Below are positions 7,717 through 56,655 of a stretch of DNA of 64,000 nt, piece after piece. The translations under genes and the position numbers were made by a program. The notes beneath the pieces are model-generated. The model did not search any database. It was not told the origin of the DNA and saw nothing but the letters and a program-made list of their open reading frames with translations. Source of the DNA: Polytrichum commune. Taxonomy: Eukaryota > Streptophyta > Polytrichopsida > Polytrichales > Polytrichaceae. Within the stretch, counting starts at the first letter, position 1. Every line of letters begins with the position of its first letter. Location: NCBI GenBank assembly GCA_950295325.1, contig OX485807.1, positions 34,624,440 through 34,688,439 on the forward strand. The letters run 5' to 3'.

Positions 7717-7801
7717 TGGGGTGAGAGAGGCTCGAACTCTCGACCTCAGGATTTCTCTTTAGCTATGAGACCTACGCGCTAGCCAACTGCGCCACCACCC
7801 C
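7717..7801 (-). tRNA. tRNA-Met (CAT), elongator, with a short intron
   Basis: The minus strand folds as a cloverleaf. The acceptor GGGGTGG pairs with TCACCCC, the D arm contains GGCGCAGTTGGCTAGCG, and the anticodon is CAT. A short intron of about 11 nt lies after the anticodon-adjacent base. The T arm is GAGAG-TTCGAGC-CTCTC and the B box is GAGTTCGAGCC. Introns in elongator tRNA-Met are a plant hallmark. No CCA is encoded. It lies 5 bp downstream of tRNA-Val on the same strand. Confidence 0.95.
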
Positions 7802-7806
7802 CCACA

Positions 7807-7879
7807 TAGTCCCTGCGGGTTTCGAACCCGCGACCTTTCGCGTGTAAAGCGAACGTGATAACCACTACACTAAGGAACC
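7807..7879 (-). tRNA. tRNA-Val (TAC)
   Basis: This is a 73-nt cloverleaf on the minus strand. The acceptor GGTTCCT pairs with AGGGACT (G1-U72 at the end). The anticodon stem TTCGC/GCGAA encloses loop TTTACAC with anticodon TAC. The T arm is GCGGG-TTCGAAA-CCCGC. There is no intron. The 5-bp spacer to tRNA-Met (TGTGG) contains no terminator. Confidence 0.94.
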
Positions 7880-10404: not shown

Positions 10405-10845
10405 TCATGTGTCCGTTTCTGTAGCAGGGGTGATTGGTGGCTTCGACATGGCTGCGATTCCCGAGCTGTCATAATTGGCTTCCCAATTTATCCCATCAAA
10501 TGTCTTAACTTCCACATCGGTGATTGTGCCTGGATCTATGCAGTTGACAGTCACCGCGAACCCGTCTTGGTTCGAGCGCGGGAGGTAGAACGAGGTAATG
10601 CCGCAAACCTTGCAAAACAAATGCTTTGCGGTGTGGGTGTTGAACGTGTACTCAGTGAGGAACTCCTTGGACGATTCTTCAAGCTCGAAGTCCGCTTTCG
10701 GGACGATGAAGTGCACGTTCCTCCTCATGAGACAATTGGAGCAGTTGCAGTCCCACACCACCAGACTCTCTGGGGCTTTCACTTTGAAGCGCACGCGTTG
10801 GCAGTGACATCCCCCTGTGTGTAGAACCACCTTGGTTGTTGCCAT
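10405..10845 (-). CDS. GFA / CENP-V-fold zinc protein
   Basis: A single coding exon of 146 residues. The cysteine pattern of the GFA (glutathione-dependent formaldehyde-activating enzyme, CENP-V) fold is present: CxC at C13/C15 in GGCHCQRVRF, CxCxxC at C33/C35/C38 in WDCNCSNC, and CxxC at C78/C81 in FCKVCG. In characterised relatives these residues hold structural and catalytic zinc. Bacterial Gfa is proposed to bind glutathione and form S-hydroxymethylglutathione from formaldehyde. Plant family members are largely uncharacterised, so the substrate is not inferred. A TTTCAG acceptor-like site ends 1 nt upstream of the ATG, suggesting a 5' UTR intron. Length and domain are complete for the family. 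Copies of a dispersed repeat lie just upstream (10887-11372). Confidence 0.88.
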   Translation of the reverse strand: MATTKVVLHTGGCHCQRVRFKVKAPESLVVWDCNCSNCLMRRNVHFIVPKADFELEESSKEFLTEYTFNTHTAKHLFCKVCGITSFYLPRSNQDGFAVTVNCIDPGTITDVEVKTFDGINWEANYDSSGIAAMSKPPITPATETDT

Positions 10846-10886
10846 TCTGAAATGAGTTTTTTAGCATGCAGGTTAAGAAATGCTGC

Positions 10887-37007: not shown

Positions 37008-37987
37008 TTCTTCCCAAGCAGTGGCGTTAGCGGTCTACAGGATCGGAGCTTCCAAGGCACCAATGTATGTCTCTCATGAATTCCATACGCTCAAGTTATA
37101 AGGGTTCAAGGTTTTATTGGTAGATGACCCAGATCCAACACGGAAGTCCAATGTTAAGGTGGTGGACATTCTCATAAGCCGTATTATACAAACTATGTAA
37201 GATTATAGGGTGTCAATTTAGCATCGTCTACCTGAACTCATATTCATATGAGTGTTGCATATCAAAGCCTTAGGCAACTATCAAATACTATACAATATTC
37301 TTCCCAAGCAGTGGCGTTAACAGTCGACAGGGGCTTCCAAGGAACCAAAGTATGTCTTTCATGAATTCCATATGCCCAAGTTATAAGGGTTCAAAATTTT
37401 ATTGGTAGATGGCCCAGATCCAACACGGAAGTCATGTGTTAAGGTGGTGGACATTCTCATAAGCAGTATTATACAAACTATGTAAGATTATAGGGTGTCA
37501 ATTTAACATCGTCTATCTGAACTCATATTCATATGAGTGTTGCATATCAAAGCCTTAGGCAACTATCAAATACTATACAATATTCTTCCCAAGCAGTGGC
37601 GTTAACAGTCGACAGGGGCTTCCAAGGCACCAAAGTATGTCTTTTATGAATTCCATATGCCCAAGTTATAAGGGTTCAAAATTTTATTGGTAGATGGCCC
37701 AGATCCAACACCGAAGTCCAGTGTTAAGGTGGTGGACATTCTCATAAGCAGTATTATACAAACTATGTAAGATTATAGGGTGTCAATTTAGCATCGTCTA
37801 CCTGAACTCATATTCATATGAGTGTTGCATATCAAAGCCTCAGGCAACTATTAAATACTATACAATATTCTTCCCAAGCAGTGGCGTTAACAGTCGACAG
37901 GGGCTTCCAAGGCACCAAAGTATGTCTTTTATGAATTCCATATGCCCAAGTTATAAGGGTTCAAAATTTTATTGGTAAATGGCCCAT
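37008..37987. repeat. Satellite-like tandem array, ~285-bp unit, 3.4 copies
   Basis: Units begin with TTCTTCCCAAGCAGTGGCGT at 37008, 37298, 37583 and 37868 (periods 290, 285 and 285). Units 2-4 are almost identical and unit 1 is more diverged. The last unit stops abruptly at about 37987 within ATTGGTAAATGGCCC. Confidence 0.92.
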
Positions 37988-38644
37988 GTTACGGTATGCG
38001 GCGTCAGCGGCCGTACCTTATCCGTTGGGCTTCATCCATTTAGAGTTAGATGGATGAACCTTAGTTTTGGAAAGTGAGGCTCCTAAGTGAGGAGCCTCCT
38101 CCTTGGCTTGGCATTCTTGCCAAGTCAAGTCTTGTAAGTTAGTGTGTGGAGAGAGCTTGTGTGAGGTGTAGATTGCATGATTTTGCAATAAATCTTGAGT
38201 TCTTCTTCCCCTACTTACACTCTTGGATTCTCCCTTGGGGTAGTGAGAGATAGCTTGACTAATTGTGTGCATTTGAAGAGAAATTAGAGTTCTTATGAGT
38301 GTTTGACTCTCTTCCTTCTCACTTGCCAATAATGCCTTCATTTTTCTTCTTTGTTTCTTCATTCTTGAGATATTATGCGCAAGGAAGGGCGTGAGGACAA
38401 GGAATGATGAAGTTCTGAAGTGTTGGAGCGAAGAACACTGCAGATTTGTGAAGCAACAAGAAACATGCCTACTTATGAATGTCACATTCAAAATGAATTG
38501 TGGTAAGAAATCTTTGAATTTTCCACGGAATTTTGTACCATTTGGTCGCTTGCAAGCTAAAATTCACGCCATTGTTTGTTTGGAAACACATTCTTCACGC
38601 TGAGTGAAGAAGAAATTGATTCAAAAAAAAAAAAAAAAAAAAAA
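37988..38644 (+). other. Poly(A)-ended insertion of unknown type
   Basis: It begins where the tandem array is interrupted (TGTTACGGTATGCGGCGTCA) and ends in 22 A residues (38623-38644). An AATAAA lies near 38188. The start resembles a plant LTR end, but no partner LTR is seen. It could be an LTR fragment or a retroposed sequence. No flanking duplication was found. Confidence 0.4.
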
Positions 38645-39903: not shown

Positions 39904-40433
39904 CATGTGATTCTTAAAACCATCACCCGGACTAGGACGCTTAAGGGTGGTGGGTTTGGACTCACAATGAGAGATGTGCATTTTCTTTTCATGGCAACAG
40001 GCAACCCTCATTTTTGACCACCAACCGCAGGCGGGTGCCGGTTGGCTGCGGTCAATTTCCATTTCTATTTAAGTATTATTTGGGGAAGAGGATCCAGTGC
40101 TGAAAATTGCATTGTTTTCTGTCTTTTGTTTTGATACCTTCCCCCGTGGCAGGCTGTATTGCTGGCAGTTGTCGGCATTGCCCCATTTTGTGTTGTCCTA
40201 GATTGTGTTAGGGTATTGTGGGGGTGAGGTTGGAGTAATGACCGACGGGACCCTTATGTGTGCACCAAGTGGGCGGTGCTTGTATTCCCTTATGGTGAGG
40301 CTGGATTGATGACCAGCAGACCATAAATTTGGTGGTGTTTGCAGGTGCAGGTTGTCTTTCACATTTTAACCCTTTACCTTGAAACCACATTAGTTTAGGT
40401 TGTTGGCTCCAGTGACCGAACCCATTGCGGGTT

Positions 40434-43400
40434 ATGATTACAACTCGGAGCCAACATTATCGTTCTCCGTCTCCAACATCATCACAAGGTCGATCCTCGG
40501 ACCTTTTGGACATTGAACCAGTGGTAGCACCCGACGAGCTTAGAATTAAAATTAAAATTTTTAATGATTGGTATGCGTTTGAGCTTCTGCCCCAGCATTT
40601 GGAGCATGAGGCTCTTCAAACTTATGAGCAGTGGACGGAGGCTCATTGGATGGAGTTGTGCCAGGTTGAGCGGTACTAGGAGACTCGGGTTGAGTTGGTA
40701 TCCGCATTGAAGGAAGGCGCAACTTCCAGTTTGATGGCCGTTCCTAAGGTCAAGACGGAGGTACCAGAGGGAGTTTATGTGGTAGATTTGAAGGGAGCTT
40801 CTCCTGATGAGCCCCGGGCTAAGGGTTATGCTCCCGCTTCGACGAGTACGTCGAGCCCAGTGCTTCCACTATCTCGTTATGCCCAGGCTACCCATGCGGC
40901 TTTAGCCTCTTTAGGGGCTCCGCCAGATTTTGAACCATTACAGGCATTTGAGCTGCATCTACAGGAGGAGTACGGAGGTTTCCGTCGGGATCAAATGCAA
41001 CGCGTACAAGACTTCAGACGGAAGAAAGACAATACACCTCGTACCATGTATACGAGGTTAGCGAGGTTTGCCAGGGAATCTGGAGGTGTGTTTGCGGAAA
41101 GTCAGTTGGTGAAGGTGTTCTTGTCAAAGATTGACAAACGCCTCCTTGACTTGGCGCTGCCCAGGATCATCATGGAGTTTGGTAGTCGGGTGACACTCGC
41201 AGAGGCATTCGCCGTGGTAGAGCAGTGTGATCGTGTATTATGTCAGCACGATGCCACTGATTTGGTGTCCTTGCTAGTGGATTCTAGCAAGCCCCAAAAG
41301 GCTCCAGTTACAACTACAGGATTGGCGGAGGCAAAGGCAGACAACACTTATCATTGTTGGTGTTGTGGGAAAGCGGGTCACGCTACGAAGGATTGTCCTT
41401 CGAAACAAAGGCAAACCCAGGTTGTAGGTACTCCGAAGCGGAAACCATTTGTTTCCGCTCAGGGTTCTGCGAAGAGGGCGGGTAATCAGTTACCCAAACA
41501 GTTGAAGTGTTCCCATTGTGGGCGGAACAATCACACGGTAGAGAACTGCTTTGCTCTCTATCCAAAGAAACGTCCTACTTCCGAACGGGAAAAAACCATG
41601 GAGGCAAAGATTGGCGCCTTGGAGGAGAGGTTCAAGAGTTTGGCGTCATCCGGCCAAATTTTGGACTCACCATCTACCTCCGGAACTAAAGCCAGTTCTT
41701 CCACTCCAGATTATTATATGTTCGGAGCTTCAGGGCAGGTGGTGAATTCCGCAGCCGTGACACGTGCTCAAACCGTGTCACGAGCCACGCCTGCGACCAC
41801 AGGAGAGTCTGTGAACAGCTTACGAGCTCGGGACAATGTTCCCGCGGATCAGATTGGCCAGGCACGTCTTCCATTGTCTTTTGGATTGGCTGATGCTGCC
41901 CAATCTATCAGTGGTCATACTTCGAACTTGGAGTCTTTGAATCCGGCGCCCGACGTGGTGCATACTTTGGCATCCAAAGTGTTGTACACCCCTTTGTTCA
42001 CGGCAATGGAGTGGTCGTCATCCGACATCCAACCAGGTAAGGTTTTTCACCTAGCATGTAGGATTTTGGAAGGGAAGGTAACACCGTCTTCCCTGACTGT
42101 GGCTCAGGCAACCACTGACCTTCCTACCACGGAGGATCCTGAGGAAGCCGCCAAACGGCAGGCGAGGCTTGCGGCAGAGGCCATTGCGTCTTTTGACGCA
42201 CACGCCTCGGATGGTCAGGAGCCAACCTCATCTTATGATTCACCAGCCTCCGCAGGCGCAGCTTATCTTTCAGATGTAGCTACTCGACCTGCTCGCGAGC
42301 GTCGAGGCATTCGACATGGCATTGTACGGATGGTGAATGATTGCAACATTTTGATGGTCAGTCGGGCTGGGGGCAACCCTATTCGAGTTGCTTCCCAGTG
42401 TGTGATGATGGATTCAGGAGCACAACCTATTATGATCGGCAAGAAACTTGCGCAGGAATTGTGGTTGACGGCCGATGACTTGGCTCATTGCCCATTTACC
42501 ATCATCACATCTATTGGCCACGTGGAGCGCGCTACTGGTTATACTCGGGAGCCTTTACAGCTTAGCTTCCGAGTGAAGCATGGAGATCCACCCGCACCTC
42601 TTCCTCTTAGGTGTGTAGTAACGGATGCGACCAATTATGATATTTTAGTTGGTCAGCAAGCATTTTACCCTCTCGGTTTTGGTTTGGACAACTGGACTGA
42701 GGAAGCATGGATCCAACCAGGTTGGTCAGCTGGAGACGGCCATAGGGAACTTATTCATGTGGCCTTTGCAGCGGCCGCCACCATCGAACCATTATCCATG
42801 ATTTTCGGATGCAGTGCTATTGTGGATACATTGCCTTACGGATCCGCATTATTGGAGGAATCATTGGCATTCATGGGGGATGTTGAAGACCCACGAGATA
42901 TGGCACTTAAGAGAGCCTTAGTATGCCATCCCAAGGGCCCTCTACCTCCGTGGCGTGATTCCGTTGGCTTGTTCCAAATGTGTGATGACATTGTCCTCTC
43001 TCTCAGTTCTACCACACCAGTCATATCGGATAGTCTATCCACGTTGGCATGCCCCATTTTGTGGCGTCCTCCAGACAATGGAATTACTTTGGTGGAACTG
43101 TTTGGGGGCATTGGCACAGGTTTGGCAGCCGTATTGGAGGCTGGCCTTATGGTCAACCGATATGTCTATGTGAACAACTCTCCAGTGTCCACCCGTGCGG
43201 CTCGTCATCATCTTCACCAGTTGATGGTGTTGTACCCACAGCAGTTACACCCGACTGCCATTCGTGGGTGTTTTTCACGTCTCCCTCGTGATGTCACACT
43301 CATCAGTGAGGCCGATTTACGACACTTAGGTCTGGTGGATATGGTGATTGTGGGATGGCCATGCGAGGGCCATTCACGTGCTAGAGCAGGCGGAGGACTA

Positions 43401-44096
43401 GAGGATCCCAAGTCTACTCTATTTTGGGACCTCATCCGCCTCATGCAGTGGTGGTTTTCCCACCAACCTTTCCCTCCAGGGTATATTTTCGAGAATGTAC
43501 CTTCGTTGGGGGACTCTCGGGACAAGGTGTTGGAAGGCGATTATTATGTTCGTCAACACCTTGGAGATCCCATTTTTGTGGATGCCGCGAGCATTGGTTC
43601 TTATGTCCACCAGCCTCGGTGGATTTGGACCAACCTTGCACTGTCATCTACTTTAGCTGCAGCATTTTTTGCCGTGCCTCCACCTTTGGATCAGAAGGTG
43701 GATGACATCTTGGATCCAAACTGGACCTCTTTGCCGGTTGTTCGAGATGATTTACCCCCATTGGCATTGGTCAACAAAGTGGGGGCACCACGGAGGGCCT
43801 TTCCCACCTTTATGACGTTTCCACAGTCATTCGCCTTCCGCGATTGGGGGTCGGGTATGGTGTGGGATGTTAACACCCAAATCCACATTGAACCCTTGGC
43901 TAATGAACGAGAGCGTGCCATGGGCTTCCGCACTGGTAACACCGTAGCTCCTGGCCTTTCTGAGGGCCAACGACGCTTCGTATTGGATCAAGCCATGGAT
44001 CTTCATACCATGGTGTGGACTGTTAGTTTATGCCTTGCATTGCAACGGCATCATGGTGACCAGTTATTGTCTCTTGGGGCAGAGAATTCTGGTTAG
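40434..44096 (+). pseudogene. Ty3/Gypsy Gag-protease-C5-cytosine methyltransferase frame
   Basis: One reading frame runs from ATG 40434 to TAG 44094, broken once by TAG 40677. Counting residues from 40695, the order is: Gag core; two CCHC zinc knuckles (C221 CWCCGKAGHATKDC and C272 CSHCGRNNHTVENC); aspartic protease with DSGA (D573); then a DNA methyltransferase domain at ~795-1115. The domain has motif I LVELFGGIGTG (799), motif IV VGWPCEGHS with catalytic Cys890 (codon 43362), motif VI FENV (E933), a DNMT3-like HQPRWIWTN (973) and a C-terminal ERERAMGF / GLSEGQRR motif IX-X region. Motif order and spacing are closest to DNMT3-type enzymes; PCE replaces PCN/PCQ. The 1133-codon stretch itself has no stop. 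The methyltransferase presumably marks cytosines, but activity is inferred only. Such fusions are known in a few other eukaryotic retrotransposons. Confidence 0.9.
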
Positions 44097-46148
44097 GGGG
44101 CACAACGGTCCACATCTATGAAGGAGGGAATTGATGTCAGGGTTGGAGAAGCCGAACGAATCTTTCGATTTGAGCAGCATGTAATGAAGGAGCTCCGAGC
44201 TCAACGAGTTTATACTGATTTGGTTTCTTCACCTCCGGTGGTGGCTTCATCATCACATATTGGTGGTGATGAAGAGGGGATGGACTCTATTGCTAGCACG
44301 GAGGTTGGGGGCATGGTTAATGCCCCCTCCTCTCATTAGCAGTTAGAGTCCGTGCCAGCACTAGGTGGCTCTCTTCTAGTGGAAAGGGAAACCACAAAGT
44401 TTGATGATTGGCCATTGGAATTGGGCCCTCATCTCACTGGTGCTGAGGCACGGAAAGTACGAGCATTTATTCGCTCGTACCGTAGGTGTTTTGTTTTTAC
44501 CCTTTAGGATCTTGAAGGTTATAAATGAAAACCCATCCACATTCAGTTGGAGGACGACCATCTCATTTTTCGGAGACCTTATAGACTCAGTGTTTCCAAA
44601 CAGATTGGCGTTCAGGCCCGTTGTCGAGAGCTCTTGGCAACAAGACTAATCGAACTTTCCAACGGGGAGTATGTTTGTGCTACGGTGATGCCATCGAAGA
44701 AGGATATCTTTGGCAATTGGACGGAGAAGAGGATGTGCGGGGATTACCGTCCAGTTAATCGGAAGACCAAGTCGGATCGGTATCCCATGCCAATCCCCGA
44801 GGAGTTGTCCGATGTCATCGGATTTTCTCGAGTCTTTAGCACCCTAGACTTGAGATCCGGCTATCACCAGCTCTCATTACTTGCGGGAGATCGAGTGAAA
44901 ACCGCATTCTGGGGAGTTGATCAAGATGGGAAAAATCAACTTTATCATTGGAAGTTTCTTCCATTTGGCCTGAAGAATGCACCCGCTGAGTTTCAGCGGG
45001 TGATGGATCAGGTTCTCTCTGGCTTGCCCTTTGCTCGGTGTTACATAGACGATGTGATCATCTTCAACACAACACCACAGGAGTATGTGAGGCATCTGCA
45101 AGCCGTTTTTGAACGGTTGCAGCGGTGGGGATTGCGCTTGCACCACGGCAAGTGCAAGATTTTCCATGACCGGCTGGCATATCTGGGGCATATGATTGTT
45201 CCAGGAGGTCTTGGGGTACAACAAGCTAAGATGGACGCCTTACAGAAGATTCCGGCACCGGTTGATGTGCCGAGACTTTGTGCTTTCTTGGGCTTGGCGA
45301 ATTACTATCGGCGATTCGTCAAGAACTTTAGCTTGATCGCCAAGCCTCTCACCATTCTCACGAGCAAGGACCAACCGTGGATTTGGGGTCGTGAGCAACA
45401 ACATGCGTTTGAGACATTGAAGCAGAAACTGGGTACGGCTTCAGTGCTTCGACGTCCAGATGTCTCCAAATCTTTCCAGTTGCATACGGATTGGAGTTCA
45501 TTGGGTTTGGGAGCAGTTCTCACGCAGAAAGATGATTTTGGCTGGGAATATGTTGTTGCTTACGCTTCGCGAAGCAATAACACGGCGGAGGCTAATTATT
45601 CATCCTACGAGGGAGAAGCATTGGCGGCGGTATGGGCTATTGCCCATTTTCGGCCGTATCTTTATGGTCAGCACTTTACTTTAGTGATTGACCATCAGCT
45701 GTTACGGTGGCTCATGGAGTCGGATAAGCTTGCTGGCAAGCTTCCCAGATGGGCTTTGTTGCTCCAGGAGTATGATTTTGAGGTGGTACACCATGCTGGG
45801 ATTACCAACCTCGATGCAGATGGACTCTCACGCAATCCAAGTCCTTCGGATGAGGACTTGACCGGGGCCAGGTGGCATGGAGATTGTGATCGAGAGGCGG
45901 TTCCAGGTTGGCACGCGGCTGCTTACCTCACTTTATTTTCTTGTGCATCTATTGAGATTCCGATACAGGGCTCGAATGATGAGACTGATCGGCCTCAAGC
46001 TATTACGGATATATGGGAGGATCTTTCCGTATTGCATAAGCTTCAACAGGGTACCTTTCCTTTGTCTATTTCGGCAATGAAAAGGTATAGGATTGGACAT
46101 CGAATAACAAGGTTCCGTTGGGAGAGCAATTTGTTATTTCGATTGTGA
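44097..46148 (+). pseudogene. Ty3/Gypsy reverse transcriptase-RNase H region
   Basis: Same frame as the Gag-methyltransferase part. In-frame stops lie at 44094 (TAG), 44337 (TAG), 44505 (TAG) and 44526 (TGA), then the frame is open from 44529 to TGA 46146. It encodes RT with RMCGDYRPVN, LDLRSGYHQL, FGLKNAPAEFQRVM and the catalytic YIDD (45042-45053), then RNase H with catalytic-type D (codon 45489), E in YEGEAL and a final HHAGITNLDADGLSR block. Domain order PR-RT-RH-INT is that of Ty3/Gypsy (Metaviridae). No ATG opens the long part, so it would need readthrough or is simply decayed. Confidence 0.88.
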
Positions 46149-46623
46149 CCGGATGGGACAAGGAGTATTGTTCCTAGGCCGGATCAGAGGGCCTCCTTGG
46201 TGCGACAAGTGCACGAGGAACTTGGCCATTTTGGCATACGCAAGACACATTCGATGTTGCGTGGCCAATATTGGTGGACTGGCATGTATCAGCAGGTGGC
46301 TGCTTATGTCGAGAGGTGTGAAATTTGTGACCGGATCAGGTCTAGCTTTAACACCTTGTCACCTCAGTTACAGCCTTTATCTATCATGGGATTGGCTACC
46401 GTTGGTCACTGGACTTTGTAGGGCCGTTGGTTGTTACATCACGTGGCGCAAAGTACGTGTTGGTGATGGTGGAGCATTTTAGCAAGTGGATTGAGTTTGT
46501 TGCTCTACCCCAAAACTCTGCAAAGTTGGCTGCAGCCGCCTTTTTGGATCGTGTGTTGGCACGTTTTGGAGCACCGGCTGAGGTGTTGACGGACCAACCA
46601 AAATGTGTCGTAAATATATAGAC
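46149..46623 (+). pseudogene. Truncated and frameshifted Ty3/Gypsy integrase
   Basis: After the stop at 46146 the same frame resumes with an integrase zinc-binding HHCC region (H..H then CEIC, 46197-46350). A frameshift near 46385-46400 moves the following core to another frame (46427-46620). Two acidic positions expected of the DDE core lie in the region, but homology stops right after the second (VLTDQ, about 46600). The last catalytic residue, the C-terminal domain and the 3' LTR are missing, so this copy cannot integrate by itself. Confidence 0.85.
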
Positions 46624-51500: not shown

Positions 51501-53925
51501 GATCTGAATAAATGCAAGAAGAAATCAGAAAATACAAGACTCGATAAGGAAACTATGGAGCAAGAGAAAGTAGCACAACCTGCTTGAGATATGATGAGAA
51601 CTACAGGATTCTCATCCAATGCATGTTGGTGTGGGATTTGCCATGGCAGCAATTTCACTGGGACAAAGCTTGGGCTACCACGGCTGGCACGAAGTGAAGG
51701 AACTAAAAGGGACCAGACTATGTGACCATCCCCTGTGTGTAAGGCAAGCACTTTCCCAGCCTTTGTAACAACAATCAGAAGCTTCCGGAAGCCATTATGA
51801 TCACGTGTTAGTTTGGTTTTGTCCGCTTGATTTAATCTCACTTGTTTAACAGCAGCTGCCTCATCAGGATTAGCAAGAAGCAGTGTCGCCTTCACCTTCA
51901 AAATATGGCCCTGTAAATTCATGTGAATGCGTAAGAACATCTTAAGAACACTGGTTGTATATATATGAGCTTGACTTACTAAGCTCTAAGCTCACTGCTC
52001 ACTCACAACATGCTATCTTGATGCTTTCTCCCTGCATACGCTAAGAGTTTTAATCACATACAAACTTCTGGGCTGAATGTGAAAAGAACTCAAAGCAAAT
52101 TGTCAGATGCTCCCAAAACCAAAGGATTCATATTTGTAGATGCCTCCACCTATTTCAAAATGATGAGATGGAGTTGACCATTTGTATTATCTCACAAATT
52201 AAAGCATTTTACTTTCTCAATGAAGACCAAATCAAATACAACGATTACAGGGATAAGAAAAGCACCTTAAGCCATTCTGACAAATCATGCTCCACCTCGG
52301 CCACAGATACTCCATCTCTCTCAAGTGGCAGTTCAGCAGTAGTGGCTTCCACAATAGATGCCAGCCCATCTTCCCTGGTCCATACTACTTCCCCCTGCTG
52401 TAGGAGTGACAAAGAATCATCCTCGCCAACAACTAGTGCTCGGAAACCAAATGATCGATCAGTCCGTAGGTAAGAGTTCAGGAAAACTTTTTGGACAAAA
52501 CCTCTATGACCAGGTAGCTTCACAGTTTCCTTCTGGATCTCCTCCAATAAATCATTGCCATACACCCTCAGGTTGAAGGTATTCTGAGTAATTCCACCTT
52601 CCAGAAGCTCTACAATGGCAGTTGCATACTTGTCATCTGAAACACTCAAGCTGTCACTAACAGCAACATCTCCTTTCAGTTGCTCAACGACATGAAATTT
52701 CCCACTTGTCTCATCAACTCTGAGAATAACAGTCTCATCATCAGAAGTTAAGCCAATGGCACCTTCCAATCTAGTGCTAGACAGCTTAACAGTGGGTCCA
52801 GGCTTTGTGAGAAGACTGGCGACTGGAGTCTCTACTATGGTCAACTCATTGGAGGGATTTATGACAGCCACTACTAATGTTTCACTGTCTGAAGTAAGAA
52901 CAACAGCAACATTCTTCGTTGTGACAAGTTCCTCTGTAGACAATAACCCAGTTGTCTCAGCTGTCTTCACATCACTAATTACACCTGCCTTGAGGTCTAT
53001 TTCCACTACAGCAACTCCAGAAATACCATAGAATCCAAATCCAAAAGCTTTCAACCCATCAGTTGATACGACCAATTTCTCAATGAATATTCCCTTGCTG
53101 CACACAGAAAGTGCCATGGTCAGAAAAATAAATGCCGACTGGCAAATTGATAGAGATGCACATGATATATGTTGGCATCTCTAAAACTTATTCAGTATTG
53201 CAAAACACATGTTTTGGAAACAACATACACCACAATACTGCATTTCTATTACTTTCAATATGGCCCAAACTAGGAGGTATTGAATATTTCAGCTTGCACA
53301 TGAGATACTGCACTAATGTCAACCCTGAACACTAAACTCCAAAATGTAGTGCTGACCTGGCAGCAGCATCAAGTCTCCAAAGTCGTGCACCATCCAGTCC
53401 AGAAATTGCAGTCAAGACACTACCACTGTACACAAGCAGGTCACTAATCTTGTCGTTGTCTACATCACCCTGCAAGAAGCCATGACACAGAGTGAGGAGA
53501 AAAATGAAACCTGGAATACACCTTGATTTGATTCACCAAAGAGTATTCATGTGACCCTGAGACTGAGAGGGAGCCTGAGAAATGGCTACAACATCCAAGG
53601 AAGGCAGCAGGCGCACAAACTACCCAATTCCGACACAGGGAGGTAGTGACAATAAATAACAATACTGGGCTTTTACAAGTCTGGTAATTGGAATGAGTAC
53701 AATCTAAATCCCTTAACAAGGATCCATGGAGGGCAAGCCTGGTGCCAGCAGTCGCGGTAATTCTAGCTCCAATGGCATATACTTTAAGTTGTTGCAGTTA
53801 AAAAGCTTGAAGACAATCAGATACCGTCCTGGTATCAACTTTAAACAATGCTGACTAAGGATTTGCAGGTATTAAATTGATGACTCCGCAAGAACCTTAT
53901 GAGAAACAAAGTTTCTGGATTCTGA

Positions 53926-53965
<40 letters not shown>

Positions 53966-56655
53966 AGAAGGGCGCCACCAGGAGTGGAGCCTGCAGTCAT
54001 ACCAAGGCTACTACACCAGATCCCATCAGAAATCTGAAGTTAAGAGCCTTTGGGCCAGAATAGTACTGGGATGGGTGACCTCCCGGGAAGTCCTGGTGCT
54101 GCATCCATTTTACTTCTTTCCACAAGTGGTTTAAATTGAATTAATACCTAGGTCTAAGGCTCAAAATGAATTGATACCAAGGTGCACCTAGGCTCCAAAT
54201 GAATTAACTAGTATATAGGTGTTGAAATTTTAAGTTTTGTCTCAGACCTAGGTGTAATGTCCAAAATTATAGGAATCAATACCTAAGGTGTAAGGTTCAA
54301 ATTGAATTGATACCTAGGTGTTCGGTTTTATTATACTTAAGACCTACGTGGTAGGTGTTATCAAATAAAAGTTTTATATGATTTGGTTCTCAAATAAAAA
54401 TCAAACTGAACGCAGGATCACATTGATTCACTTTGGTAAATTCACCTTGAAGAGACTGCAGTTCTATGAGCCACTTCAGAAAGATGTATATTAGGCAAAA
54501 TCATTACAGGATTACAAACATCCCATGGATGATTCATGCAAATACCAGAGAGTCAACAATTCTATCAACAGTGTCATTTTGGAATGAGCTACATGGACAC
54601 AAATAGAAGACAAAGATTGGTTTGTTGATAATCATTACTCACAGGCAATTTAATCAAGCCCAAGTTGAATCCTGGAGTGGCCTGTATAGAGGTTTCCCAA
54701 AGAAGAGCCCCATCGGTTATGAGCCAGGATCTCACAATGCTCCCTTTTGATAGGGTGATTACAACTGTTGCCAACCAAATACAAGGTTAATTCATAAAAC
54801 TGAGAAGTAGTTCAAATGAAATGTGAAGTATTAACACCACAGTTGATATGGCCAGTCAATAATGTGTAAATGAAGTTGGCCAAAGCTTGGTAAATGAATT
54901 GCTCTTTGCCCAGAGGCCCAAAAACTGTAACAAAGATGCAGTAAGCAACTAGCTCATAACAATCTGATCTTTTTTCTCACAAATAACTCAATCTTTAGAC
55001 ATCCCCATGAAAATATATGTCCTTTCAATCCTTGCATCATATGATTCAACTTCACTGAAATTGATACATGTCTACAGCTGCTAGCTGCTACAGAGGGAAT
55101 AACTGAATCAAGAGAAGGACGTCCAGAATCAGATTCCTTTGCATCAAATTGCCACTAAGCTACACATGTAGAAAGCACACATTGCAGTCTAATTCAGATT
55201 ATAAGTCTTGACATACTTACATTTTCCCATTGAGATTTCAAGCCCATCAATAGTGTCCCCTTCACCCAGCACATGCCTCCAGTCTGTGCAAACCCCATAA
55301 GAATCAACAACGTCAAGATACCTACAATCTCAACACTCATATGGCAGGAGAGTTCAGACACCTGCCTCGTACAATTGACCAGTGTTCTGCAATTTGAAAA
55401 CTAGTCTCCACAATTTAAAATCTCACAAAAGCAGTCAAAGTGTAATGATATATCATTCCCATGACTTCATGATGCAGCTGATACTCTACATTAAGGAGAA
55501 CAAGCAGGAAAGATCTCCAAGGTTCAACTGCCTTGTGTCCTCTTCTGGCTAATTACCCTTTTGATTTTAAATCTCTAACAACAACAACAACAGATTAGAA
55601 ATTGAAACTTTAAAAAAACTACTCATTCACTCTAACCCGAGTAAGGAAGCCCAAACTGGCTGATTGTTCTTACAAATGCTCTGACATGAAGTTAGTAAAT
55701 CATTCTTATCACTTCATAACGGACCTGATACTCTATTTTGAAGGGAACCAGCAGGACATGTTTTACGAGGTTCAACTGCCTTGTGTTCTCTACTGGCTGA
55801 TTACTCTTAGAATTTAAAACTTATATTAAAAAGTCCCTCTCTCTATCTCGAGTAAGGAGGCCCAAACTCACAATGGAATTTCCATCCTGCTGCTACAAAG
55901 ATTCATAAATCTAGTCTAAAGATGAAAGGGTCTAGGGAAGAAGGAGATAGGAGCTCAACGTACAAATGTCACCAGTGCGAAGATTCAGGGAAGCTATGGC
56001 GTTCTCCTCAGTGGCAACAACCACACGCTTGCGACCTGCGCCTTGTGTCTGGAATACAGCATGCTTCACCCGCCCTATATACTGCTGATGCCTGAATTGT
56101 GTCATCCACCCAACGCACACGAAAAAATAAGTCTTTTACACGTCCCCGCATCCAGAGTAAGGTGTCAATCGATGATCACTTAGCCTCCGGCCGGAAGAAA
56201 AAAAAAACAACACATGACTAATCCTTCACCTCTCAAACCCTAAGTCCACAAAAACCACCAATGCCGAGCCAAAGGCAGCTGGGTCTCCATAATTCCGGGA
56301 ATCTGCGTACTAATTGCTTATGATCCTTTGTGGAGCTCTCGAATAACTTAGGATTTCGAAACACATCAACACGATACTCGGATACCAAAATTTGAATTGC
56401 CTACTCTGATCCCGCAGCTGACTCGAATTGCACAAGGAAACCGTTCGATGAAAAATAAATTATGCAGAGGGGTCCTGGTAACATCCGTGTTTGATGAAGA
56501 AGAAGAAGCAGGGGTTGAGAGCGTTGAGATAAATAAAATACTCACCAATCACGCACACCAACTTGATCTTCGTAGAGCGCATGGCATGAAGAGATGAGTG
56601 CGATGGCCGCTACCAAGAGATGGAGGAGCAGCGACAGGGGCCGCCGTGGAGCCAT
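48583..56655 (-). CDS. EMC1: ER membrane protein complex subunit 1 (EMC1), thirteen exons
   Basis: Exons: 56546-56655, 55964-56091, 55221-55283, 54643-54764, 53357-53469, 52266-53097, 51580-51910, 50914-51323, 50293-50514, 50000-50095, 49619-49819 (or 49813), 49217-49330 and 48583-48843. They give about 1000 residues in one frame, the usual EMC1 length. EMC inserts tail-anchored and multipass proteins into the ER membrane; EMC1 supplies the large lumenal beta-propeller and one membrane anchor. Seen here: a signal peptide ([20 protein letters not shown]) and mature start ALYEDQVG, then [40 protein letters not shown] and [15 protein letters not shown] (the DUF1620 region), a C-terminal membrane segment ([21 protein letters not shown]) and the tail KELAEKWK. 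An upstream in-frame ATG exists at 56724; 56655 is chosen because the signal peptide follows directly. Intron 4 carries an rRNA chimera. Confidence 0.95.
53561..53994 (+). pseudogene. 18S rRNA pseudogene with internal deletion (EMC1 intron 4)
   Basis: Two 18S blocks are joined. Block 1 (53561-53807) covers GAGAGGGAGCCTGAGAAA-GG through the 530-loop (GTGCCAGCAG-CGCGGTAATT) to GTTAAAAAGCT. Block 2 (53808 to about 53994) covers GAAGAC-ATCAGATACCGTC through GAGTATGGTCGCAAGGCTGA to AGGAGTGGAGCCTGC. About 350 nt between them are missing relative to a full 18S, and many substitutions are present. Both blocks run antisense to EMC1. It is fused directly to a 5S copy. Confidence 0.92.
53993..54106 (+). 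pseudogene. 5S rRNA pseudogene fused to the 18S fragment
   Basis: Near full-length 5S sequence: GATCCCATCAGAA, AAGTTAAG, GTACTGGGATGGGTGACC, GGGAAGTCC and the GCATCC end are recognisable. The first few 5S bases are replaced by the 18S junction (GCCTGC|AGTCATACC). The internal C box is well conserved and the A box less so. No T-run follows at once. Confidence 0.9.
54130..54360. repeat. Short degenerate tandem repeat in EMC1 intron 4
   Basis: A GAATTGATACCTAGGTGTAA-like unit recurs about six times with a 30-45 bp period, directly downstream of the 5S pseudogene. Confidence 0.6.
55480..55872. repeat. Tandem duplication in EMC1 intron 2, ~240-bp unit
   Basis: The copies share TGATACTCTA, AGGTTCAACTGCCTTGTGT, TACTGGCTGATTA-like and CGAGTAAGGA-GCCCAAACT blocks, at about 55480-55655 and 55725-55872. 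Confidence 0.7.

What the first reader, a model, noticed from the sequence alone, without database searches (positions are those of the whole stretch)
43083..44040. A plant Ty3/Gypsy retroelement that carries its own DNMT3-like cytosine methyltransferase
Inside the same open frame as two Gag zinc knuckles and a DSGA protease, and upstream of RT, the sequence encodes ELFGGIGTG, a catalytic-type PCE (Cys codon 43362), FENV, a DNMT3-like PRWIWTN block and a C-terminal MGF / GLSEGQRR region. This is a whole catalytic domain, not a scrap. Retrotransposon-encoded cytosine methyltransferases have been described in dinoflagellates and a charophyte alga, as I recall; in a land-plant Gypsy element this would be a new or little-known case. 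An element that methylates DNA could hide itself from, or bend, host silencing.
Basis: partly seen in the sequence, partly recalled or inferred. Interest (0 to 1): 0.95.

Follow-up and report, generated by a model that had tools for sequence, protein, structure and literature searches.

The report
Moss retrotransposon carrying DNA methyltransferase
A large family of jumping genes in a moss carries its own DNMT3-like enzyme for putting methyl marks on DNA, so a genome parasite of a land plant may carry a tool of the system that normally silences it.

Summary
ORF 40695-44096 encodes Gag, two zinc knuckles, a DSGA protease and a full-length DNMT3-type C5-cytosine methyltransferase (MTase; Pfam E=2.8e-8; AlphaFold pLDDT 90; the 50 Foldseek PDB rows shown are all DNMT3 entries). 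The host is a moss, judged by one gene. The window copy is dead: extra stops, broken integrase, changes at conserved MTase sites (PCQ to PCE). But the same genome holds at least 231 MTase loci in two subfamilies. Of the 81 best reverse-transcriptase loci, 80 have MTase sequence upstream. Ten fetched copies keep the checked MTase motifs and have 4-bp target duplications; MTase dN/dS is 0.25. Gag-PR-MTase is separated from Pol by an in-frame UAG in tobamovirus-type leaky context (UAG-CAR-YYA), so the MTase is probably made at Gag level. Split A-coding-B-A-B repeats match the published KnitGypsy-Dnmt3 of the charophyte Klebsormidium. Relatives in metagenomes and Closterium carry the MTase before or after RT, and MTase and RT trees agree. 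So this is a land-plant branch of a known kind. Self-methylation of cDNA is the likeliest function but is untested: no methylation, expression or enzyme data were available.

The parts
38081..38320 (+). Remnant of terminal repeat A (its left start was not mapped), with the self-priming segment GCATTCTTGCCAAGT at 38111-38125
   Evidence: 38098-38259 aligns to L001 7224-7390; same segment as in host copies
38321..38335 (+). Primer-binding-site-like ACTTGCCAATAATGC, two mismatches from the complement of 38111-38125
40432..40679 (+). Damaged start of Gag, with in-frame stop TAG at 40677-40679 where relatives have Trp
   Evidence: sequence read against alignment A1
40680..44093 (+). ORF1: Gag, protease, MTase (first listed start codon 40695)
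41355..41549 (+). Two CCHC zinc knuckles (about 41355-41396 and 41508-41549)
   Evidence: conserved C/H columns in A1; coordinates computed from residue numbers
42387..42749 (+). Aspartic protease region; DSGA at 42411-42422
   Evidence: no Pfam protease hit in the window protein; relative P0001 matches PF13650 below the curated cutoff, P0085 above it
43080..44030 (+). DNMT3-like C5-cytosine MTase domain, motifs I, IV, VI, VIII, X; catalytic Cys codon 43362
44094..44096 (+). Secondary premature stop TAG; relatives have Gln here
44337..44345 (+). Family stop with leaky context TAG CAG TTA (UAG-CAR-YYA), in frame with Pol, 210 nt before the RT query start
44547..46145 (+). Reverse transcriptase and RNase H (Pol)
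   Evidence: PF00078, PF17919, PF17917; preceded by stops at 44505 and 44526
46149..46596 (+). Integrase remnant: stop at 46146, then a frame change; homology to L001 ends at 46596; PHD finger and right-hand repeats missing
   Evidence: no second terminal repeat found

Best explanation
Shown: the window holds a dead, truncated copy of a high-copy moss Ty3/Gypsy family that stably carries a DNMT3-type C5-cytosine methyltransferase between protease and RT, in the order A repeat - Gag - PR - MTase - UAG - RT - RH - IN - PHD - B - A - B. Inferred: ribosomes stop at the leaky UAG most of the time, so Gag-PR-MTase is the major product and the MTase is packed into particles at Gag-like amounts, while readthrough makes a minority with Pol. 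Reverse transcription is primed by the element's own RNA, whose A segment pairs with the PBS. The MTase methylates the new cDNA de novo in the particle or preintegration complex. The cDNA, with A-start/B-end termini (probably by way of a circle or dimer), is inserted by the DDE integrase with a 4-bp target duplication and arrives already methylated, which most likely protects it from host surveillance or fits it to the host's methylated-repeat state.
For: MTase identity. Moss host: one gene. At least 231 MTase loci (116, 117, two shared). 80 of 81 listed RT loci have MTase sequence upstream. Ten copies: checked motifs kept in 10 of 10; 4-bp target duplications in 10 of 10, read by eye; A repeats 98.5-100% identical in the seven copies that have two. 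Purifying selection: MTase dN/dS 0.25 over 45 pairs, Gag 0.23, RT-RH 0.06 over 15 pairs. Leaky UAG in 9 of 10 subfamily-1 copies, 10 of 10 subfamily-2 copies, the window and L001, fitting the UAG-CAR-YYA consensus (PMC3542737, one passage). Self-priming complementarity kept with different sequences in two subfamilies and L001. RT and MTase distances agree, Mantel r 0.83 against at most 0.19 in 999 permutations. Published precedent for activity: DNMT domains of SymbioDIRS-Dnmt3 methylated CG de novo in yeast (PMC5890265).
Against: No methylation, expression or enzyme data for any of these elements. KnitGypsy-Dnmt3's domain showed no activity in the yeast test, though human DNMT3B did not either. 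CpG observed/expected in element coding sequence is 0.74-0.79 in the ten copies, above the 0.50 of the rest of the window, so there is no sign of excess CpG loss from self-methylation; base composition differs, so the test is weak. Readthrough was not measured. The circle/dimer step rests on repeat layout alone. Four of the ten copies, chosen for a long ORF1, have an interrupted Pol. The tail from the PHD finger on shows dN/dS about 1.2 on few changes, the tail after the MTase 0.87.
Confidence: 0.6

Rival explanations
1. The MTase acts in trans on the host: it perturbs or dilutes host methylation, or silences competing or sister copies, limiting damage so that the element persists.
For: High copy number and a MTase likely made at Gag level. 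In Physcomitrium, CHH methylation is deposited mainly by DNMT3 (passage of PMC10952607). de Mendoza et al. discuss host effects and a beneficial slowing of transposition.
Against: No methylome here. K. nitens, which carries such elements, has global methylation patterns like those of land plants (PMC5890265).
Confidence: 0.2
2. The domain no longer serves DNA methylation: it works as a nucleic-acid-binding or RNA-methylating part of Gag.
For: It sits on the Gag side. Some relatives have ECQ in place of PCQ in motif IV (P0064, P0072, P0081, P0083, P0085, P0089).
Against: All 12 close relatives and all 10 fetched host copies keep PCQ, and the 10 copies keep ENV, motif VIII and the motif X region; dN/dS 0.25.
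Confidence: 0.15
3. A one-off insertion of a host DNMT3 gene into one element, or a misassembly.
For: The window copy is broken and mutated.
Against: At least 231 loci on seven large contigs, 80 of 81 RT loci with the MTase, relatives in metagenomes and Closterium, matching RT and MTase distances.
Confidence: 0.01

Closest known systems
KnitGypsy-Dnmt3 of the charophyte Klebsormidium nitens (PMC5890265; parts 1-4 of 7 of the main text and passages read, figures not held)
   Same: Ty3/Gypsy domain composition, an unpermuted DNMT3-related MTase in the coding region, purifying selection on it, and DIRS-like A-coding-B-A-B repeats
   Different: Host is a moss, not an alga. Here the MTase lies after the protease and before a leaky UAG, outside the RT-bearing ORF; the paper's text puts it in the Pol polyprotein ORF. 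I had no K. nitens sequence, so direct kinship is untested.
SymbioDIRS-Dnmt3 and SymbioLINE-Dnmt of Symbiodinium (PMC5890265)
   Same: Retrotransposons carrying a cytosine MTase; SymbioDIRS-Dnmt3 is of DNMT3 type with split repeats
   Different: Tyrosine recombinase (DIRS) or LINE elements; here an rve integrase, 4-bp target duplications and TG...CA ends
Other reported MTase-bearing retroelements (passages only)
   Same: PMC6338049 says DAM- and DCM-encoding Ty3/Gypsy and DIRS elements occur in green algae and charophytes among others; PMC12344493 says some DNMT3 members sit in LTR Copia and DIRS retrotransposons of streptophytes and dinoflagellates
   Different: PMC6338049 says they are not present in land plants; neither passage describes a moss element
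Tcn1-type chromoviruses of mosses (PMC6317226, passages read)
   Same: Gypsy elements of mosses, predicted self-priming
   Different: Chromodomain elements; the words methyltransferase and methylase do not occur in that survey's main text. Here a PHD finger and a MTase; no Tcn1 sequence was compared
Tat-lineage plant Gypsy elements with an added RNase H (aRH) domain (PMC6317226, passages read)
   Same: An added domain found at different places in the polyprotein (PR-RT, RH-INT, after INT) in related lineages, like the MTase here (before or after RT)
   Different: RNase H, not a MTase
Animal DNMT3A/DNMT3B
   Same: Fold, motif order, closest solved sequence and structure
   Different: Motif IV PCQGHSRAG in place of PCNDLS; no ADD/PWWP domain was seen (their presence in animal DNMT3 is from PMC12344493); 18-21% identity in the structure alignments shown

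Membership tests
Ty3/Gypsy (Metaviridae) LTR retrotransposon | RT and RNase H of Gypsy type, with integrase after RNase H | tested here: met
   RVT_1, RT_RNaseH, Integrase_H2C2, rve in that order in L001; best PDB hit of L001's RT is Ty3 RT, 1.6e-77; window itself: RT and RNase H
Ty3/Gypsy (Metaviridae) LTR retrotransposon | Identical complete LTRs at both ends | tested here: not met
   Host copies have split repeats A-coding-B-A-B (7 of 10) or A-coding-B (3 of 10); filed by RT and Pol order, as de Mendoza et al. did for KnitGypsy
Ty3/Gypsy (Metaviridae) LTR retrotransposon | TG...CA termini with short target-site duplication | tested here: met
   10 of 10 copies, 4 bp; one subfamily-2 copy likewise
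DNMT3 family MTase | C5-MTase motifs in unpermuted order | tested here: met
   Motifs I, IV, VI, VIII, X in order, unlike permuted DRM
DNMT3 family MTase | Nearer to DNMT3 than to other C5-MTases | tested here: met
   Profile search of the PDB: DNMT3A 6.8e-11, HaeIII 7.7e-6, HhaI 3.7e-5, DRM 1.9e-4; no DNMT1, CMT or DNMT2 among the 60 rows shown of 69; the 50 Foldseek rows shown are all DNMT3 entries. Solved structures only
DNMT3 family MTase | Clusters inside a tree of host DNMT3 genes, including moss DNMT3 | not tested
   The PF00145 search of the host genome did not complete
DNMT3 family MTase | De novo DNA methylation activity | not testable with these tools
   needs an enzyme assay
KnitGypsy-Dnmt3 | Gypsy Pol, DNMT3-related MTase and DIRS-like split repeats | tested here: met
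   against the text of PMC5890265
KnitGypsy-Dnmt3 | MTase within the Pol ORF | tested here: not met
   MTase is upstream of the UAG, in the Gag-PR ORF
KnitGypsy-Dnmt3 | Sequence kinship with K. nitens copies | not tested
   no K. nitens sequence identified among the hits
DIRS / tyrosine-recombinase retrotransposon | Tyrosine recombinase, no target-site duplication | tested here: not met
   rve integrase in L001 and 4-bp duplications in host copies

The most novel reading that the evidence does not exclude
An old green-lineage retroelement lineage, running from algae to land plants, has inherited a DNMT3-like MTase together with its RT, delivers it at Gag stoichiometry through a leaky UAG, pre-methylates its own self-primed cDNA, and uses a DDE integrase to insert a circularly permuted, split-repeat cDNA: a retrotransposon whose new copies are born methylated.
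Probability: 0.3. Interest if true: 0.92.

Novelty: new variant of a known kind. Interest (0 to 1): 0.82.

Why it matters
[quoted passage not shown] Here a moss genome carries at least 231 MTase loci, 28 of them in frames of 1340 aa or more without a stop in the matched stretch (counted by eye), under purifying selection. Mosses can be grown and transformed in the laboratory (recalled) and Physcomitrium methylation depends on DNMT3 (passage of PMC10952607), so the question of why a parasite would carry the enzyme used to silence it becomes testable. The elements also pair split repeats with a DDE integrase, which bears on how such cDNA is integrated.

Tried and rejected
One-off insertion or misassembly: rejected. 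A typical two-LTR layout: first taken for granted; the paired repeats turned out to be A-coding-B-A-B or A-coding-B. tRNA-iMet PBS (recalled motif): with up to 3 mismatches none in L001 and two weak, misplaced matches in the window; replaced by the self-priming reading. Is UAG-CAR-YYA chance? The motif alone is at chance level in the window (6 against 4.4 expected) and 2 against 0.36 in L001; its weight comes from falling on the ORF1 stop at the same place in separate lineages. dN/dS of window against L001: dS saturated, so redone within the host. CpG depletion as a trace of self-methylation: not seen. Viral contigs gave no relative for A1 or for RT and 36 loci for the MTase profile, which I take as phage or bacterial C5-MTases without examining each; so the RT tree has Ty3 as its only outgroup and cannot tell one capture of the MTase from several. 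DNMT3A is a long, half-filled branch in both MTase trees that hold it; the element clade against DNMT3A is therefore weak evidence. Papers: ten searches, seven on MTase-bearing retroelements or plant DNMT3 and three on readthrough or repeats; no listed title or abstract start reported a methyltransferase-bearing retrotransposon in a land plant, nor did the passages read in PMC9033089, PMC9477723, PMC6317226, PMC10952607, PMC10538959, PMC12344493 and PMC12730594. Subscription papers and preprints are not held.
Full report
What is in the window. A single frame, 40695-44096 (1133 aa), encodes the larger part of Gag, two CCHC knuckles, a DSGA protease and a C5-cytosine methyltransferase. Pfam DNA_methylase scores 34 bits against a cutoff of 22. 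The best solved sequence is DNMT3A, 5.5e-8. With a profile of 13 family proteins the order is DNMT3A 6.8e-11, HaeIII 7.7e-6, HhaI 3.7e-5, DRM 1.9e-4, and DNMT1, CMT and DNMT2 are not among the 60 rows shown of 69. The AlphaFold model of the domain has mean pLDDT 90.4 and pTM 0.90, and the 50 Foldseek PDB rows shown are all DNMT3A, 3B or 3C entries, best E 1.9e-17. RT and RNase H follow at 44547-46148.

The window copy is dead. It has in-frame stops at 40677, 44094, 44505, 44526 and 46146, a frame change in the integrase, and homology to an intact relative ends at 46596. At sites where the relatives agree (at least 9 of 12 with a residue, all the same) it deviates at 20 of 148 in the MTase, 13 of 108 in Gag and 10 of 64 in the protease; three relatives tested the same way, each against the other 11, deviate at 4-10 of 152-158 MTase sites. 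Q896E beside the catalytic Cys, G902R and R978Q in motif VIII are among them. So the domain is full length but probably not active in this copy.

Host. The GFA-domain gene at 10408-10860 (-) has its best named hits in Ceratodon purpureus (76%) and Physcomitrium patens (72%), with an unnamed 94% hit above them (120 best of 1089 listed). P450, GT47 and GFA domains elsewhere in the window are confirmed by Pfam. The assembly has 407.8 Mb in 64 contigs, nearly all of it in C1-C7 (contig lengths). I take the host to be a moss, on this one gene; the species is not known to me.

The family in this genome. A search with the window MTase gives 116 scored places out of 598 first-look candidates. A search with a second subfamily's MTase gives 117 of 590. 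Two places are shared, so there are at least 231. Open frames of at least 1340 aa without a stop in the matched stretch are shown by 12 of 116 and 17 of 117 rows, one shared (28 distinct, counted by eye). Of the 81 scored RT places (of 2448 first-look candidates), 60 have a listed MTase place within 6 kb upstream on the same strand, 40 of them at exactly 1494 bases. Of the other 21, the upstream 1.2 kb was fetched for 20: 19 have MTase sequence, several only in part, and one (L085) none. The last one has a full domain (L104). That makes 80 of 81. RT places beyond the best 81 were not examined, so MTase-less relatives may exist.

Ten copies chosen for long open ORF1 frames were read with flanks. 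This choice favours young copies. ORF1 is 1347-1372 aa in 10 of 10, with motifs I, IV (PCQ), VI, VIII and X in 10 of 10. It ends in TAGCAATTA in 9 of 10; L048 ends earlier in TGA. Pol follows in the same frame, 1045-1048 aa in five copies and 973 aa in a sixth; in the other four it is interrupted. L001's Pol ORF, of the same layout, has RVT_1, RNase H, Integrase_H2C2, rve and a PHD finger by Pfam; in host copies the PHD motif was seen by pattern in six of ten. The subfamily-2 stop is TAGCAATCA in 10 of 10 at the same distance from RT, L001 has TAGCAATCA and the window TAGCAGTTA. All fit UAG-CAR-YYA, the tobacco mosaic virus type readthrough context (PMC3542737, one passage read). The motif by itself is no more common than chance in the window.

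Ends. Seven of ten copies have repeats A (about 334 bp) and B (107 bp) as A-coding-B-A-B; three (L046, L054, L058) have A-coding-B. B was measured as a repeat in L062; in the other six the right end aligns to the end of L062's second B. The A copies are 98.5-100% identical, 100% in two of seven. Elements begin with TGTC and end with ACGACA, and all 10 have a perfect 4-bp target duplication (read by eye). Where B meets A, a palindrome GACAGCTGTC is found in the seven B-A-B copies, in the subfamily-2 copy and in L001, and not in the three others. One subfamily-2 copy shows the same layout with A 438 bp and B 106 bp. De Mendoza et al. give the same layout for KnitGypsy-Dnmt3 and call it that of a DIRS element (PMC5890265). 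My reading that the inserted form is a circularly permuted cDNA opened at the B/A junction is inference.

Priming. Just after the left A lies ACTTGGCAAGAATGC or a close variant, whose complement lies about 210 nt upstream inside A, 12-15 nt perfect in eight of ten copies (L048 has none; in L046 the motif was not found). Subfamily 2 (one copy read) has ACTTGACAACAAT with its own 13-nt complement, and L001 ACTTGACAAAGAT with its own. Different sequences with kept pairing point to self-priming. In a control, 23 of 3000 flank positions had a 12-nt or longer complement 60-450 nt upstream.

Selection. Within the host (10 copies, 45 pairs) dN/dS is 0.25 for the MTase, 0.23 for Gag, 0.44 for the protease, and (6 copies, 15 pairs) 0.06 for RT-RH and 0.21 for IN; the tail after the MTase is at 0.87 and the tail from the PHD finger on at 1.2 on few changes. 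The pairs are not independent, and the divergence varies by region (dS 0.24 in Gag, 0.14 in the MTase, 0.06 in the protease and RT-RH), which hints at exchange between subfamilies.

Relatives. The first protein search (15 hits among the 8000 candidates scored) found 12 close relatives (56-66%), all proteins without RT: Gag-PR-MTase in 11, and P0006, which starts in the protease; two Gypsy polyproteins at 35-36%; and a gene model of Closterium sp. NIES-54 with a 55-residue MTase match upstream of RT. A second search from P0013 gave 82 proteins. Of 67 relatives with both RT and MTase found by profile, 64 have the MTase after RT (layout B) and three before it (layout A: P0015, P0085, P0089). In P0017, whose domains were listed, the MTase lies between RNase H and integrase, with a PHD finger at the end. 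In the MTase tree (93 rows) A and B separate with support 94, in a smaller careful tree with 95/70. In the RT tree (62 rows) 5 A and 56 B separate with 100, and Closterium, on a long branch, lies inside A. RT and MTase distances correlate, Mantel r 0.83 over 59 rows and 0.84 within the 55 B rows, against at most 0.20 in 999 permutations. So the MTase has travelled with its RT for a long time. Whether it was captured once cannot be told, since MTase-less Gypsy elements other than Ty3 were not available. The hosts of most relatives are unnamed; L001 lies in a contig labelled cyanobacterial, which I take to be eukaryotic contamination.

Comparison and novelty. Retrotransposon MTases are known in Symbiodinium and in K. 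nitens (PMC5890265), and reported for green algae among others (PMC6338049, passage). [quoted passage not shown] A survey of plant LTR elements does not contain the words methyltransferase or methylase in its main text. My seven paper searches on the subject listed no land-plant case. The moss family is thus a new variant of the KnitGypsy kind: new host group, high copy number, MTase on the Gag side of a leaky UAG.

Function. The likeliest role is de novo methylation of the element's own cDNA. What is shown is the enzyme's conservation, selection, placement and precedent; activity, target and benefit are inferred. No CpG depletion was found in the elements (0.74-0.79 against 0.50 in the rest of the window), which does not favour heavy long-term CG methylation beyond the surroundings but may reflect youth and composition.

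Noticed in passing
37008-37986: Tandem repeat of 285-bp units (three full copies and a partial fourth, about 89-95% alike) ending just left of the element remnant.
   Followed up: no
53442-54107: A eukaryotic SSU rRNA fragment (53442-53924, gapped against the model) followed within 65 bp by a nearly complete 5S rRNA (53989-54107), next to the start of what looks (by recall of the protein; no Pfam hit) like an EMC1 gene.
   Followed up: no
7717-7879: Two tRNA-like genes 5 bp apart on the minus strand, one tRNA-Val(TAC), perhaps organelle-derived.
   Followed up: no
L001:1-9285: A MAG contig filed as a Synechococcales cyanobacterium (CADCWO010000201.1) holds an MTase-bearing Gypsy element whose two ends overlap by 127 bp, so the assembly is circular.
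   Followed up: partly
P0064, P0072, P0081, P0083, P0085, P0089: Motif IV reads ECQ in place of PCQ in these element MTases, a change at a normally conserved proline.
   Followed up: no
L046-L065 (leader between the PBS and ORF1): About 0.8-0.9 kb of the leader of L062 does not align to eight of the nine other host copies while the flanking parts do (L056 aligns throughout): a fast-changing leader.
   Followed up: no
L046-L065 (Gag, protease): Synonymous divergence differs about fourfold between Gag and protease in the same copies (dS 0.24 and 0.06), as if copies had recombined.
   Followed up: no
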